A stretch of DNA of 61,152 bases from Clostridiaceae bacterium. GTDB taxonomy: Bacteria; Bacillota; Clostridia; Saccharofermentanales; Saccharofermentanaceae. The notes below the pieces were generated by a model that saw only the letters and a list, made by a program, of their open reading frames with translations, was not told the origin of the DNA and ran no database searches. Location of the stretch: positions 1 through 61,152 of the forward strand of contig JAAYBI010000065.1 in NCBI GenBank assembly GCA_012718915.1, in the 5' to 3' direction. Shown here piece after piece: positions 1 through 7,864 of the stretch (its first letter is position 1; the number at the start of each line of letters is the position of its first letter). The translations under genes and the position numbers were made by a program.

Positions 1-4
1 ACCA

Positions 5-122
5 TTCCGGCGGCTATGACAAAGAGGCCACACCTGTTCCCATCCCGAACACAGCCGTTAAGCTCTTTTGTGTCGACAATACTTGGCTGGCAACGGCCCG
101 GGAAGATAGATCGCTGCCGGAT
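5..122 (+). rRNA. rrf: 5S ribosomal RNA
   Basis: The sequence carries the conserved 5S core (CACACCTGTTCCCATCCCGA, then ACTTGGCTGG) and closes with a terminal helix in which TCCGGCGGC near base 6 pairs with GCTGCCGGA ending at 121. A tRNA gene follows within a few bases, so this is probably the end of an rRNA operon whose 16S and 23S genes lie upstream of the window. Exact ends are good to about 3 nt. Confidence 0.95.
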
Positions 123-127
123 TATAT

Positions 128-203
128 TCCTCAATAGCTCAGTTGGTAGAGCATGCGGCTGTTAACCGCAGGGTCGTAGGTTCGAGTCCTACTTGAGGAG
201 CCA
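128..203 (+). tRNA. tRNA-Asn (anticodon GTT)
   Basis: A full cloverleaf is visible. The acceptor stem is TCCTCAA with TTGAGGA. The D-arm contains AGCTCAGTTGGTAGAGC. The anticodon stem TGCGG/CCGCA encloses a CTGTTAA loop with GTT at 161-163, and the T-arm contains GGTTCGAGTCC. The discriminator base is G and the 3' CCA is encoded. It sits 5 nt after the 5S gene and is probably processed from the rRNA transcript. Confidence 0.97.
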
Positions 204-3354: not shown

Positions 3355-4119
3355 TTATGCTTGGGATTCAGGTTCTTGAAGCAATGCAATGACCTCTGCC
3401 TCGAATTCCGAAGAATGGATTTTTTCAGGTGGTATCGGACGCAATTGACCATCATGAAGGACGACAATCTCATCGCACAAATCTTGAGCCAGCTGGAGTA
3501 TGTGTGTTGAAAATATGATGATATGGTCCTTCTTGATATTCTTAATCATGTTTTTGACTTCGAGAGCGGCAACAACGTCGAAAGAAGTCAGCGGCTCGTC
3601 GAGTAAGATGACCGGCGGTTTCAGTATGTGCATGGATATAAGCATCTGAAGTTTATTCATCATGCCGTGCGAGTAGCCTTTAATCAGGCGATCCCCGTCG
3701 GCAGGGTTGAATGCAACCATTCGAAAATAATCATCGACTTCTTTCGGATTCTGAATTTTGCCTCCGTTTATCTCAATGAAAAATTTGATGAACTCTCGGC
3801 CGGTCATAAACTCGGGTAAGTGTGGTTGCGTGAATACAAATCCAATATCACTTTCTTTGTAGTTCCTTGATTGATTGGATGAAGCTGAGACGGACTCAAA
3901 GAAACCAGGCGCATCGGTTGCCTCGTCATTGTAGTCAATTGCAATCCGTCCGCTATTGAATTCAAGGTAACTTGCAAGGCAATTGAACAGAGTGGTCTTT
4001 CCGGCACCGTTGCGGCCCAACAAACCGTATATGCGCCCTCGTTCAAAAGTATAGGTTACCTTGTTGAGAACCGTATGAGAATCGAAACTGTGCTCCAGTT
4101 CGTGAATGTGAAGACGCAT
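3355..4119 (-). CDS. ABC transporter ATP-binding protein
   Basis: 254-residue nucleotide-binding subunit that energises the membrane protein encoded next. The Walker A motif GRNGAGKTT is at residues 35-43, the Walker B is VILLDEP, and the H-loop is IIIFSTHIL. The ABC signature is divergent: YSHGMMNK where LSGGQ is usual, close to the SxGM(R/x)xK style of NatA/BcrA-like exporters. A GCGGAGG site fixes the ATG. It is the first gene of a two-gene operon. Export rather than import is likely because no binding-protein gene is present. Confidence 0.88.
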   Translation of the reverse strand: MRLHIHELEHSFDSHTVLNKVTYTFERGRIYGLLGRNGAGKTTLFNCLASYLEFNSGRIAIDYNDEATDAPGFFESVSASSNQSRNYKESDIGFVFTQPHLPEFMTGREFIKFFIEINGGKIQNPKEVDDYFRMVAFNPADGDRLIKGYSHGMMNKLQMLISMHILKPPVILLDEPLTSFDVVAALEVKNMIKNIKKDHIIIFSTHILQLAQDLCDEIVVLHDGQLRPIPPEKIHSSEFEAEVIALLQEPESQA

Positions 4120-4179: not shown

Positions 4180-4491
4180 GTGCCTCGAAGTCAGGGCTAG
4201 ACACCTAGTTCCGTGAAAGGCATGAATGTTATTGTGTGACAAGACACGGATACTGTCGTTAACGGATTTTGACGCTGGAAATGTTGCTCAAGTCTTTTAC
4301 CAGAGATACGCCACGGAAAATATTTCCGTGCCGGGCACGTTGAAGTCGTCAATATCCGAGGATATGGAGTGTTTTGAATGATTATGCCGGTACGGGATTT
4401 GCGCGAAAAAGCAAGTGAAATGCATATACCGACTAAGCGGAGAGTTTGGGTGATTTGGGCGGCAATAGCGGGCCGAGATGAATTATATATT
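4180..4491. other. Intergenic stretch without a recognisable gene
   Basis: No credible reading frame is seen on either strand. The only structure I note is the inverted repeat CACGGAAAATATTTCCGTG (4312-4330), with 8-bp perfect arms and no T-run, so it is not a terminator. Short AT-rich palindromes are also present. Confidence 0.6.
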
Positions 4492-4937
4492 ACATTCTAA
4501 CACATACGAAATGGTTGAGTTTGAGCTGTGTCGTATGTAATTGCCTCCAAAATCGGAATTTTTGCATCTTTTGGCGGTAATTACATATCTTCTCCGCTTC
4601 CCGATGCAATGATTATCTCAAGATCTACCGCAAAATTCTGATGTTTTGTAACTTTTGGCGGTAATCTGCAACTTTCTCAAGGAGATACGAAGTCATGAGG
4701 TGCTTTATTTACCGTTTCGTATGTATTGACTTTGATTATCAACTTAGCGTGAAACGTTTTGCTACATTCTAATACATACAAGACTGTTACAAGTATTCTG
4801 TTTCGTATGTATTTTTCTAATAATTCTGCCACATTTGCGTAGTCTAATACATACGAAATGGCTGGGTTTGTGCAGTTTCGTATGTATTTGTGCTTCTGAA
4901 CAGCTTCTTCTTCACACTCTAATACATACGAAATGGG
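4492..4937. repeat. Array of dyad repeats (TAATACATACGAAA ... TTTCGTATGTATT)
   Basis: Left arms related to CTAATACATACGAAATGG start at 4498, 4679 (degenerate), 4770, 4845 and 4920. Right arms related to CAGTTTCGTATGTATT start at 4529, 4715, 4801 and 4876. In three units the right arm lies exactly 31 bp after the left arm, making a hairpin-capable dyad of about 44 bp. The last three left arms and the last two right arms repeat at exactly 75 bp. The fifth unit has only its left arm. Loops and inter-unit spacers are not conserved. The array lacks the constant-repeat/variable-spacer design of CRISPR and the T-runs of terminators. Confidence 0.85.
4541..4664. repeat. Second dyad type (TTACCGCCAAAA ... 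TTTTGGCGGTAA), two copies
   Basis: Copy 1 has arms TTGCCTCCAAAA (4541-4552) and TTTTGGCGGTAA (4569-4580). Copy 2 has arms TACCGCAAAA (4626-4635) and TTTTGGCGGTAA (4653-4664). The right arms are identical and the left arms degenerate. These units sit between the first and second CATACGAAA-type dyads, and copy 1 abuts the first of them (shared bases 4541-4542). They have a similar overall size of about 40 bp. Confidence 0.7.
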
Positions 4938-4970
4938 AAATTTTGATGATTTTGTCTGTAATTCCCTGAA

Positions 4971-4984
4971 GCGAAACGTTTCGC
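4971..4984. promoter_or_regulatory. LacI-family-like palindrome
   Basis: A perfect 14-bp palindrome GCGAAACGTTTCGC with the central AACGTT common in LacI/PurR/CcpA-type operators. A weaker relative, GTGAAACGTTTTGC, lies at 4749-4762. The site is about 400 bp upstream of the nearest downstream gene, so its target is uncertain. Confidence 0.35.
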
Positions 4985-4989
4985 GAACA

Positions 4990-5080
4990 GCCCACACCAG
5001 CACACCACCAACGCCGAACGGCCCACACCAGCACACCACCAACGCCGTACAGCCCATTCCACCACCGCCACAGCCGTCGC
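4990..5080. repeat. 31-bp C-rich tandem direct repeat, about 2.9 copies
   Basis: Two near-identical 31-bp units (4990-5020 and 5021-5051) begin GCCCACACCAGCACACCACC and differ by two bases at the end. A third, diverged unit follows (5052-5080). The tract is strongly strand-asymmetric, with C and A on the + strand and almost no T. It encodes only low-complexity proline/threonine or glycine/valine strings, so it is unlikely to be coding. Confidence 0.85.
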
Positions 5081-5389
5081 TACCCTCGCTTACGAGTCAT
5101 TCTATTTCTAGTCGAATATTGTCCGGGACGGTGGTAAATGCACACTGTTCAACTTGCATCCCAATAACTCAGTTGTTCGCCCCGAAGCATTACTACACTA
5201 TTCTTGGGAATAGATAAAGAACCCGAGACAGCGTTTGTATTATTTCCGCTTGCGAGACAGCTCTGTCCTTATTGTAGAGTATTCTTGAAATATCTTATTT
5301 TTTTAGAGTATTAGCATCTTCTTGTCCATTTGTCTGATAAAATAGTTTTATCGATTACTGATTACATGAGCTGAAAGGATACTTCGACT
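5081..5389 (+). other. Intergenic region upstream of the HerA-like gene
   Basis: No gene is seen. Before the next start there is an inverted repeat GATAAAA/TTTTATC (5336-5352) that overlaps a -10-like TAAAAT, and an AAAGGA ribosome-binding site. A convincing -35 box at proper spacing was not found. Confidence 0.5.
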
Positions 5390-7864
5390 ATGGAAAGTTT
5401 TGAAAATCTCAATGCGTTTTATCTCGGCCGCGAGTATGACCCGAACCAAAGGCAGGATTTACCGAATTACTTGCTGTATGATTCGAAGGATCTTCTAACC
5501 CATGCAGTCTGCGTCGGTATGACCGGAAGCGGGAAGACCGGATTGTGTCTTTCACTACTTGAGGAGGCCGCGATTGATGGCATCCCGGCGATTGTTATTG
5601 ATCCCAAGGGCGATATGGCCAACTTGTTTTTGGCTTTTCCTGATCTGGCTCCGGAGGACTTTCGCCCATGGATTAACGAGACTGAGGCGGTTAATGCCGG
5701 ACAGACTCCGGATGAATTTGCTGCCGCTCAGGCAAAAGTATGGTCCGACGGGCTCAGAGATTGGGGTCAGGACGGCAAACGTATTGCCATGATGCGCGAA
5801 AAGACTGATTTTGCATTATATACGCCCGGCAGTACAGCGGCTGCTCCTATTTCAGTCTTACAACAGTTGACGCCGAAGTCTGTTTCTTTAGAAGAGGATC
5901 AGGAGGTGGTCCTGGAACAAATTTCTTCTACGGTTTCCGGGTTGTTGTCGCTGCTCGGTATTGATGCGGACCCGATTCAGAGTCGGGAACATATTCTATT
6001 GTCCAACCTGCTCATCAATGCCGCTCAATCTGGTGTGGGAATGGATATTGCCACTCTGATTGCGAGTATTCAGCAACCGTCGATTCAAAAAATCGGTGTA
6101 ATTGATATGGAAGATTTCTATCCGGCCAAGGACAGACTGGCGCTTGCGCTTAAGATTAATAACTTGCTCGCGTCTCCTAAATTTGCAACATGGATGCAAG
6201 GCGATCCGCTTGATATCGACCGCTTATTATATTCAGCTTCCGGGAAGCCGAAAATTTCCGTATTATCCATCTCGCATTTGAATGATGCAGAGCGTATGTT
6301 TTTCGTTACGATTCTCTTGAATCAAGTGCTTTCGTGGACACGCCAACAAAGCGGCACAGGCAGTTTGCGCGCGATTCTGTACATGGACGAGATATTTGGA
6401 TTTTTTCCGCCGGTTGCGACGCCACCGTCTAAAGCGCCTCTGCTTACATTATTGAAGCAAGCCAGAGCTTTCGGGTTAGGTGTAGTACTGACCACACAGA
6501 ATCCTGCAGATTTGGATTATAAGGGGCTGTCCAATACCGGCACTTGGTTTATCGGACGTTTACAGACCGAGCGCGATAAAGCTCGGGTTTTAGAGGGGCT
6601 GGAAGGTGCGGCGGCGAGCCAGGGAACGGGATTTGATCGTCAGCAGATGGATCAGCTTTTGTCCGGACTGGACAAGCGCGTCTTCTTAATGAATAACGTT
6701 CATGATCGTGCACCGACGCTATTACGTACGAGATGGTGTATGTCATATCTTCGTGGGCCGCTTACGCGCAATCTGATTCAGAAACTTTACAGCGAGAATC
6801 CGGCGATCAGAGAAGCTTCTTCCGGTTCGGCGATGATCCCGAACCCTTCTTCGAGCAGCGTTACGGCACAGCAAGAATCGATTATTCCGGTCATGGAATC
6901 GGCTCCGGCACCGGCGAACGTCGCAGTGGCTTCCCCTTCGCCAAATGAAGCACCGATACCCGGTGGAATGCTTCCTAATCTGCCTTCGGATATTCGGCAA
7001 TATGTACTGAGCAAGAGCGGAGCAACTGCTTACGTTCCGACTTTGTTGGGTATTGCTCAGATTGGGTACAAGGATGCTGGTTCAGGAATGCAAAGCAGTC
7101 AGGAACTCGCGCTCTATACCGCCCTAAAGGATGGTGTTTTCGTGGCGGACTGGGATGAAGCCGAAGAGCTTGAATACGCTTTAGATCAGTTAGATACGGC
7201 ATTGCCGGCCGGCGCATCGACCGCTGCTTTGCCGGAAGCGGCTCGGCTGAGCCGTAATTACACTGCTTGGAAGCGAGAGTTGACGGATTGGCTGTTTCGC
7301 AATAAGTCCGTGACGCTTCTAGAAAATCCAGACTTAAAAATGATGGCGCTCCCGGGTGAAAGTGAACGTGATTTTCAAATTCGTATTCAACAAAGAGTTC
7401 GAGAGGATCGAGATGCTGCAATAGAGGCGCTTCGCAAAAAATTCGCAGTAAAGATTCAGTCACTTGAGGAGAAAATTCGAAAGGCGGAACAGGCAGTCGA
7501 CCGTGAAAAAGAGCAGGCCAAAACTCAAGGTCTTCAGACGGCGATTTCGGTTGGTGCGACTTTTTTGAGTGCTTTCATGGGTAAGAAGCGTGTATCAGCA
7601 TCCAGTGTCGGCAAGGCGACTACGGCAGCGCGCGGTGCGAGCCGAACCATGAAGGAGCAAGGAGATATTAAGCGCACAAAGGACACGGTTGACGCTTATA
7701 AAGAGCAATTGAAAGCACTTGAGGAGCAGATTGAGACTGATACACAAGCACTTTCGGATAGCATGGATCAGGCTGCAACCAATATTTCAGAGAAGCGTAT
7801 TAGTCCGATGAAAAAGGATATCTTGATTCGATCAATGGTCATTCTTTGGGTAGCGGCAGACTAG
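5390..7864 (+). CDS. HerA/FtsK-like P-loop ATPase with C-terminal coiled coil
   Basis: 824-residue ATPase of the HerA-FtsK superfamily (DUF87-type central domain), hexameric motors that translocate DNA or protein. Walker A GMTGSGKT is at residues 43-50, followed by the family segment IVIDPKGDMANL. Walker B ILYMDEIFGF is near residue 330, and VVLTTQNPADLDYKG forms the sensor region. After a proline/serine-rich linker (about 475-525) comes a charged, coiled-coil-rich C-terminus (about 655-800) interrupted by a short hydrophobic stretch. No NurA nuclease, SIR2 or other usual defence partner is adjacent. The function is therefore open: DNA processing or conjugation-like pumping are both possible. 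AAAGGA precedes the ATG. Confidence 0.8.
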   Translation: MESFENLNAFYLGREYDPNQRQDLPNYLLYDSKDLLTHAVCVGMTGSGKTGLCLSLLEEAAIDGIPAIVIDPKGDMANLFLAFPDLAPEDFRPWINETEAVNAGQTPDEFAAAQAKVWSDGLRDWGQDGKRIAMMREKTDFALYTPGSTAAAPISVLQQLTPKSVSLEEDQEVVLEQISSTVSGLLSLLGIDADPIQSREHILLSNLLINAAQSGVGMDIATLIASIQQPSIQKIGVIDMEDFYPAKDRLALALKINNLLASPKFATWMQGDPLDIDRLLYSASGKPKISVLSISHLNDAERMFFVTILLNQVLSWTRQQSGTGSLRAILYMDEIFGFFPPVATPPSKAPLLTLLKQARAFGLGVVLTTQNPADLDYKGLSNTGTWFIGRLQTERDKARVLEGLEGAAASQGTGFDRQQMDQLLSGLDKRVFLMNNVHDRAPTLLRTRWCMSYLRGPLTRNLIQKLYSENPAIREASSGSAMIPNPSSSSVTAQQESIIPVMESAPAPANVAVASPSPNEAPIPGGMLPNLPSDIRQYVLSKSGATAYVPTLLGIAQIGYKDAGSGMQSSQELALYTALKDGVFVADWDEAEELEYALDQLDTALPAGASTAALPEAARLSRNYTAWKRELTDWLFRNKSVTLLENPDLKMMALPGESERDFQIRIQQRVREDRDAAIEALRKKFAVKIQSLEEKIRKAEQAVDREKEQAKTQGLQTAISVGATFLSAFMGKKRVSASSVGKATTAARGASRTMKEQGDIKRTKDTVDAYKEQLKALEEQIETDTQALSDSMDQAATNISEKRISPMKKDILIRSMVILWVAAD

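What the first reader, a model, noticed from the sequence alone, without database searches (positions are those of the whole stretch)
4492..4937. Dyad-repeat array with exact 75-bp spacing in a gene-poor island
Hairpin-capable units with arms CTAATACATACGAAA and TTTCGTATGTATT recur at 4498, 4679, 4770, 4845 and 4920. The last three left arms are exactly 75 bp apart and the arm-to-arm offset is exactly 31 bp in three units, while loops and spacers differ. Constant geometry with variable filler suggests selection on the arms or recent unit amplification. It is unlike CRISPR, terminators or integron attC sites. It may be a binding array, a nucleoid/segregation site or a mobile palindromic element.
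Basis: seen in the sequence. Interest (0 to 1): 0.6.

Follow-up and report, generated by a model that had tools for sequence, protein, structure and literature searches.

The report
Mobile DNA element packed with dyads
The repeat array is the middle of a roughly 1-kb non-coding mobile DNA element that is scattered through this genome, carries the same ends as an ISL3-type jumping gene, and is filled with rows of mirror-image sites whose sequence and spacing are kept while the DNA between them changes freely.

Summary
The array is real but is only the middle of a larger element. Window 4195-5223 is a composite, non-coding mobile element. Its terminal inverted repeats (consensus GGCTCTTCACCTATTTCCGTGAAA) match the end of an ISL3-family insertion sequence in the same genome. 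Several copies have 8-bp target-site duplications, and the sister species lacks the element at the same gene junction. About 25 arrays in this genome hold the 43-bp dyad A (60 units with arm offset exactly 30; periods 86 or 75). The same element also carries dyad B (TTACCGCC-N24-GGCGGTAA, 40 bp, period 84) and a CACC-rich tail. In 83 B units the arms are nearly invariant (1.88 bits), the loops vary (0.72 bits), and no compensatory change was seen. Another genus of the family carries dyad B with identical arms and 39-40 bp length but loops no more alike than shuffled ones, in elements without ISL3 ends. That fits half-sites for a DNA-binding protein better than RNA hairpins; the protein is unknown. 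Closest known kind: pneumococcal BOX elements. This is a new, unusually large ISL3-type variant.

The parts
4195..5223 (+). whole composite non-autonomous element, 1029 bp
   Evidence: homologous DNA in other copies starts and stops near these ends; left TIR at 4195, right TIR ending at 5223; window 4188-5297 is replaced by about 60 bp in sister species G001 between the same two genes
4195..4218 (+). left terminal inverted repeat GGCTAGACACCTAGTTCCGTGAAA (4 mismatches to consensus)
5200..5223 (-). right terminal inverted repeat GGTTCTTTATCTATTCCCAAGAAT (eroded, 7 mismatches to the left-end consensus)
4219..4495 (+). 5' module (leader), about 70% identical to other copies
4426..4466 (+). eroded dyad of type C (ATACCGAC ... 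GGCGGCAAT, 41 nt) inside the leader
   Evidence: read; intact forms in L058 and L065 and in G005 loci L069-L071
4499..4541 (+). dyad A unit 1, arms 13 nt, loop 17
4541..4580 (+). dyad B unit 1 (TTGCCTCC ... GGCGGTAA), 40 nt, starts 42 bp after dyad A as in 12 of 13 intact A-B junctions
4625..4664 (+). dyad B unit 2, 84 bp after unit 1
4709..4727 (+).
4771..4813 (+). dyad A unit (75-bp type), left arm diverged (AATACATACAAGA)
4846..4888 (+). dyad A unit with perfect 13-nt arms
4921..4962 (+). hybrid unit: A-left arm with B/C-type right end (TCTGTAAT), 42 bp; hybrids recur in 9 other places
4971..4985 (+). palindrome GCGAAACGTTTCGCG closing the array
4986..5090 (+). CACC-rich tail
5091..5199 (+). 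3' module
3355..4119 (-). flanking gene (ABC-type ATPase by its sequence motifs; not tested by profile), conserved at the same place in G001
5390..7864 (+). flanking gene (824-aa protein, 88% identical in G001)

Best explanation
The array is the interior of a composite, non-autonomous ISL3-type transposable element (a MITE-like element; complete copies of 0.4-1.3 kb). Shown here: matching terminal inverted repeats, an ISL3 transposase gene behind the same repeats, 8-bp target duplications in several copies, and a filled/empty difference between sister species at this site. Inferred: a transposase acting in trans mobilised the copies, and the interior dyads grew and shrank by in-register recombination between units (75/86-bp periods, hybrid A/B units). 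Also inferred, less certainly (about 0.5): the dyad arms are half-sites of a sequence-specific DNA-binding protein that needs a fixed half-site spacing (29-30 bp from arm start to arm start); arm sequence and spacing are kept while loop sequence is free. The confidence below is for the identity as an ISL3-type mobile element, not for the binding step.
For: Copies: 118 arm matches and about 25 arrays in G000. Ends: TIRs in G000, G001 and G005 copies; complete TIR pairs around elements of 419-1262 bp. Target duplications: L070 8/8, L010 7/8, L012 7/8, L068 6/8 matching at the exact boundary, where 2/8 is expected. Transposase: the ISL3-family gene at G000:C4 (NF033550, 234 bits, cut-off 180; PF01610 with HTH and Zn ribbon) starts about 60 bp inside the same TIR. 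G009 ISL3 left ends share the TIR and following bases with the G005 non-autonomous elements. Empty site: G001 has the same gene pair with the element absent. ISPpu12a, an ISL3-family element, is listed with 24-bp repeats and an 8-bp duplication (PMC4133298). Dyads: A, n=60, arms 1.79 versus loop 1.16 bits; B, n=83, arms 1.88 versus loop 0.72 bits, no pair with a change on both sides. G010 (other genus) has the same arms and length 40 (32 units) or 39 (11); central loop identity to G000 0.33 versus 0.32 shuffled.
Against: The window copy's own target duplication is weak (5/8) and its right end is eroded. Six of 13 end pairs match at only 2 of 8 positions or fewer (L028, L062, L044, L051, L065, L069), perhaps through age or recombination. 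The only ISL3 gene found in G000 is cut off at a contig end. No transposition was observed. The binder is unidentified, and shared descent without selection could explain part of the within-genus arm conservation, though not easily the contrast with loops or the G010 case. In G010 the dyads lie in repeats without ISL3 ends, so the dyads are not part of ISL3 biology as such.
Confidence: 0.88

Rival explanations
1. The dyads act as RNA: they are stem-loops in transcripts that attenuate, stabilise or are cleaved, as proposed for other MITEs.
For: The + strand of 4492-4975 folds better than all 100 shuffles (z -4.55), as palindrome-rich DNA would in any case. BOX elements can be transcribed and MITE transcripts are proposed to be structured regulators (PMC3049150, PMC10969869). 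Different dyad types (B: TTACCGCC, C: TTACCGACTAAA) keep symmetry with different arms.
Against: Within types no pair changes on both sides (B) and changes break pairs rather than compensate (A: outer pairs A-A in 21 and C-A in 16 of 60). Hybrid A/B units that cannot pair recur. Loop length hardly varies although loop sequence does. No Rfam family matches.
Confidence: 0.25
2. Neutral satellite: the dyads are simply tandem duplications inside the element with no function, and arm conservation reflects recent descent or gene conversion.
For: Unit number varies and neighbouring units within one array are near-identical (L022, L024). Recombination between units is evident.
Against: Arms and loops of the same units have very different conservation. 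The same arms and length occur in another genus with unrelated loops.
Confidence: 0.2
3. REP/BIME-type repeats moved by a RAYT tyrosine transposase.
For: Interspersed intergenic palindromes in mosaics.
Against: No Y1_Tnp (PF01797) match in the genome; TIRs and 8-bp duplications point to a DDE transposase.
Confidence: 0.03
4. A chromosome-organisation or segregation site.
For: Protein-site-like dyads; spacing classes 42, 63, 72-73, 75, 84, 86 lie near whole turns of 10.5 bp (R = 0.83 on six classes).
Against: Copies sit in mobile elements, are dispersed, and the site is empty in the sister species; most genomes of the family lack the dyads.
Confidence: 0.04

Closest known systems
BOX elements of Streptococcus pneumoniae / S. 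suis (PMC3049150)
   Same: composite non-coding element with TIRs and target duplications, end module, variable array of internal modules, end module, ends resembling a resident IS; in S. suis the same boxB modules occur between different end modules
   Different: BOX ends resemble ISSpn2 and elements are 67-637 bp; here the ends are ISL3-type, complete copies reach about 1.0-1.26 kb, and there are at least three dyad types with fixed spacing
ISL3-family insertion sequences (e.g. ISPpu12a, PMC4133298)
   Same: terminal repeats of about 24 bp (GGCTCTT... in the local ISL3 copies), 8-bp target duplication
   Different: the element carries no transposase gene; its interior is dyad arrays and a CACC-rich tail
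BIME/REP palindromic repeats (PMC3733652)
   Same: interspersed intergenic mosaics of palindromic units
   Different: no RAYT gene found; TIR-bounded element; GTAG/CGTC tags were not tested
Correia elements with IHF sites (described in PMC10969869)
   Same: a MITE that carries a binding site for a host DNA-binding protein
   Different: Correia elements are far shorter; here the sites form arrays and the binder is unknown

Membership tests
ISL3-derived non-autonomous element (MITE) | terminal inverted repeats shared with a resident ISL3 element | tested here: met
   TIR of the transposase-bearing copy differs from consensus at 3 of 24 positions; G009 ISL3 left ends match exactly
ISL3-derived non-autonomous element (MITE) | 8-bp target-site duplication | tested here: met
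   8/8 L070, 7/8 L010 and L012, 6/8 L068; window copy only 5/8 and several copies none
ISL3-derived non-autonomous element (MITE) | no transposase gene of its own | tested here: met
   only a 126-aa and a 94-aa open frame overlap the window element; periods of 75 and 86 do not keep one frame across copies
ISL3-derived non-autonomous element (MITE) | multicopy and polymorphic insertion | tested here: met
   about 25 arrays; empty site in G001
ISL3-derived non-autonomous element (MITE) | mobilised in trans by the transposase | not testable with these tools
   needs a transposition assay
BOX element | sequence homology to boxA/boxB/boxC | not tested
   BOX sequences were not compared; resemblance is of architecture only
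REP/BIME with RAYT | Y1 (RAYT) transposase in the genome | tested here: not met
CRISPR array | short exact direct repeats with unique spacers of constant length | tested here: not met
   spacers between dyads recur among loci and periods are 75/86/84
Rfam RNA family | match over gathering score | tested here: not met

The most novel reading that the evidence does not exclude
Dyad B (TTACCGCC-N24-GGCGGTAA) and its relatives are a spacing-locked binding module for an unidentified DNA-binding protein, carried by unrelated mobile elements in several genera of one bacterial family. The elements gain from it, for example through silencing, tethering or transposition control, so selection keeps arms and geometry while everything between them turns over.
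Probability: 0.4. Interest if true: 0.65.

Novelty: new variant of a known kind. Interest (0 to 1): 0.45.

Why it matters
Bacterial MITEs are usually short and their interiors are treated as filler. Here the interior dyads are among the best conserved parts in sequence and spacing, and the same dyad recurs in another genus inside repeats with other ends. If a host or element protein binds it, that would be a testable case of mobile DNA carrying arrays of protein sites between elements and genera. The arrays also help explain why this genome assembly breaks where it does.

Tried and rejected
RAYT/REP (no Y1 transposase). Rfam RNA at gathering and permissive thresholds. Phage origin: the dyad A pattern is in no viral contig and dyad B in 7 of 2.9 million, not inspected. 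A genome-collection scan for dyad A gave one Burkholderiales contig, not followed and probably chance. Dyad B outside the family: 1 of 397 other genomes of the phylum, chance level. Covariation as support for RNA: none within types. Coding function of the array: periods of 75 and 86 do not keep one frame. Literature searches for ISL3-type MITEs in the open library gave 1 and 8 papers; only PMC4133298 was read for ISL3, so absence of earlier descriptions is not established.

Full report
What was reported and what is there. They are there and are far above chance (9 matches in the window against 0.6 expected, none of 100 shuffles reaching this). The 75-bp spacing of the last three left arms is exact. 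Two of the five listed units are not dyads. At 4679 there is no left arm: the right arm at 4715-4727 is fused to the left arm of a second kind of dyad (TTACCG at 4709). At 4920 the A-left arm is followed by a different right end. For 13-nt arms the offset is 30.

The arms are common in this genome. With at most 2 mismatches there are 118 matches, against 10 for the reversed control. They form about 25 arrays on many contigs, several of which end inside an array. In 66 dyads found by script the arm offset is 30 in 60 and 29 in 6. Unit starts are 86 bp apart in 26 cases and 75 bp in 10; the rest are single values. The 86-bp unit holds a palindrome GCGAAACGGTTTGC in its spacer; the 75-bp unit does not.

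The array belongs to a longer element. Comparing copies shows homologous DNA from about 4192 to 5223 of the window: a 5' module of about 300 bp, one or more dyads A, dyads B (TTACCGCCAAA-N18-TTTGGCGGTAA, 40 bp, period 84 or 83), a palindrome GCGAAACGTTTCGCG, a CACC-rich tail and a 3' module. Relatives occur in the only other genome of the genus searched (G001, 26 matches) and in one of another genus (G005, 3 matches), and in none of the other 36 relatives. In the G001 copies that were read, dyad A is single rather than arrayed, so its amplification appears specific to the window's species.

It is a mobile element with ISL3-type ends. The 5' and 3' ends are inverted repeats (consensus GGCTCTTCACCTATTTCCGTGAAA). 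An ISL3-family transposase gene was found in the genome (contig C4, cut by the contig end; NF033550 and PF01610 with HTH and zinc-ribbon domains), and the same repeat lies just outside its start. In G009, of the same genus as G005, an ISL3 gene 74% identical over the piece present starts behind exactly this repeat, and its first bases continue into sequence shared with the non-autonomous elements of G005. An element in G001 (L051) carries the end of the window species' ISL3 copy (TTTGTTCATCTAGACGGAGGGTGA) and three dyads B. Flanking 8-mers match 8/8 (L070), 7/8 (L010, L012) and 6/8 (L068) at the exact boundary, where 2/8 is expected; the window copy scores 5/8, and six of 13 pairs score 2 or less, in line with age or recombination. 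ISL3-family ISPpu12a is listed with 24-bp repeats and an 8-bp duplication (PMC4133298). At this very junction G001 has the same two genes with window 4188-5297 missing.

What the dyads may do. Among 83 dyads B of 40 bp the arms hold 1.88 bits per position and the loop 0.72; no pair shows a change on both sides. For 60 dyads A the figures are 1.79 and 1.16, and variation in the outer pairs breaks pairing (A-A in 21, C-A in 16 of 60). Hybrids with an A-left arm and a B/C-type right end were found in ten places, seven of them 42 bp long. These facts speak for recognition of arm sequence at a fixed distance, not for RNA helices kept by pairing, although the region does fold well as RNA (z -4.55). 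The strongest evidence is G010, from another genus: its arrays carry TTACCGCC/GGCGGTAA dyads of 40 bp (32) or 39 bp (11), with periods of 63 and 72-73, no ISL3 ends, and central loops no more similar to those of G000 than shuffled ones (0.33 against 0.32). Six spacing classes (42, 63, 72.5, 75, 84, 86) lie near multiples of 10.5 bp (R = 0.83); this is suggestive only, since the classes are few and were chosen after the fact. The dyads are confined to few genomes: 6 of 115 in the family, two of those with a single chance-like match, and 1 of 397 others in the phylum.

Mechanism, with status. Shown: ends, duplications in several copies, transposase with the same ends, empty site, multicopy state, arm-versus-loop contrast. 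Inferred: mobilisation in trans by an ISL3 transposase; growth and shuffling of arrays by recombination between units; binding of the arms by a protein with two half-sites at a fixed distance. Unknown: the protein, whether it is encoded by host or element, and the benefit.

Comparison with the known. The architecture (end module, variable array, end module, IS-like ends, target duplications) is that of the pneumococcal BOX element, which ranges from 67 to 637 bp, and whose S. suis relatives carry the same boxB modules between different ends (PMC3049150), much as dyad B does here. No sequence comparison with BOX was made. REP/BIME with RAYT is rejected; CRISPR and known RNA families are not met. 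A review notes MITEs with host-protein sites, such as an IHF site in a Correia element (PMC10969869). I therefore call this a new variant of a known kind, with one unusual property: interiors conserved as spaced sites across elements and genera.

Limits. The genome is a draft of 113 contigs and copy numbers are minima. Dyads were collected by searching for their arms (up to 1-4 mismatches allowed per arm), which biases arm conservation upwards; the near-absence of the allowed mismatches and the constancy of loop length are less affected, and for dyad B every loop length from 14 to 40 was open to the search. Genes flanking the element were not assigned by profile search.

Noticed in passing
L105-L115 (genome G010, another genus of the family): A separate interspersed repeat of usually three 40-bp dyads (ATTACCGCC...GGCGGTAAT, periods 72-73 and 63). 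At some loci (L105, L107, L109) it lies between inverted copies of a CTGTCTCAAA..GTGATT-type end; at others no such ends were seen.
   Followed up: partly
L067-L074 (genome G005) and L065 (G000): Non-autonomous elements of 419-670 bp with the same ISL3-type ends but other interior dyads (TTACCGACTAAA..TTTAGTCGGTAA, 40 bp; CGGACGAAAC..GTTTCGTCCG).
   Followed up: partly
L014 and L018 3' flanks; L050, L051, L076: Another insertion sequence or its end (GTCCGTATAATGGTGTAAATTC..., with a frame starting MAQVNLTLTHEEVLQVL) sits in or next to the dyads or ISL3 ends, as if it inserts into them; looks IS256-like from memory, not tested.
   Followed up: no
L047 2100-2387 element orientation, and L044/L045 (genome G001): A further repeat type with arms like AATACAGCC...GGGCTGTATT next to dyads B.
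   Followed up: no
window, L012, L019, L028, L029: Five of about ten copies with both flanks readable lie between divergently oriented open frames, i.e. between promoters.
   Followed up: no
window 4986-5090 and the tails of L013, L022-L024, L027, L031, L043: CACC/CCGCC-rich tail of differing length, G-rich on the other strand; could form G-quadruplex-like structure.
   Followed up: no
window 1-203: The contig begins with a 5S rRNA gene (6-122) and tRNA-Asn (128-203), so it probably breaks at an rRNA operon.
   Followed up: no
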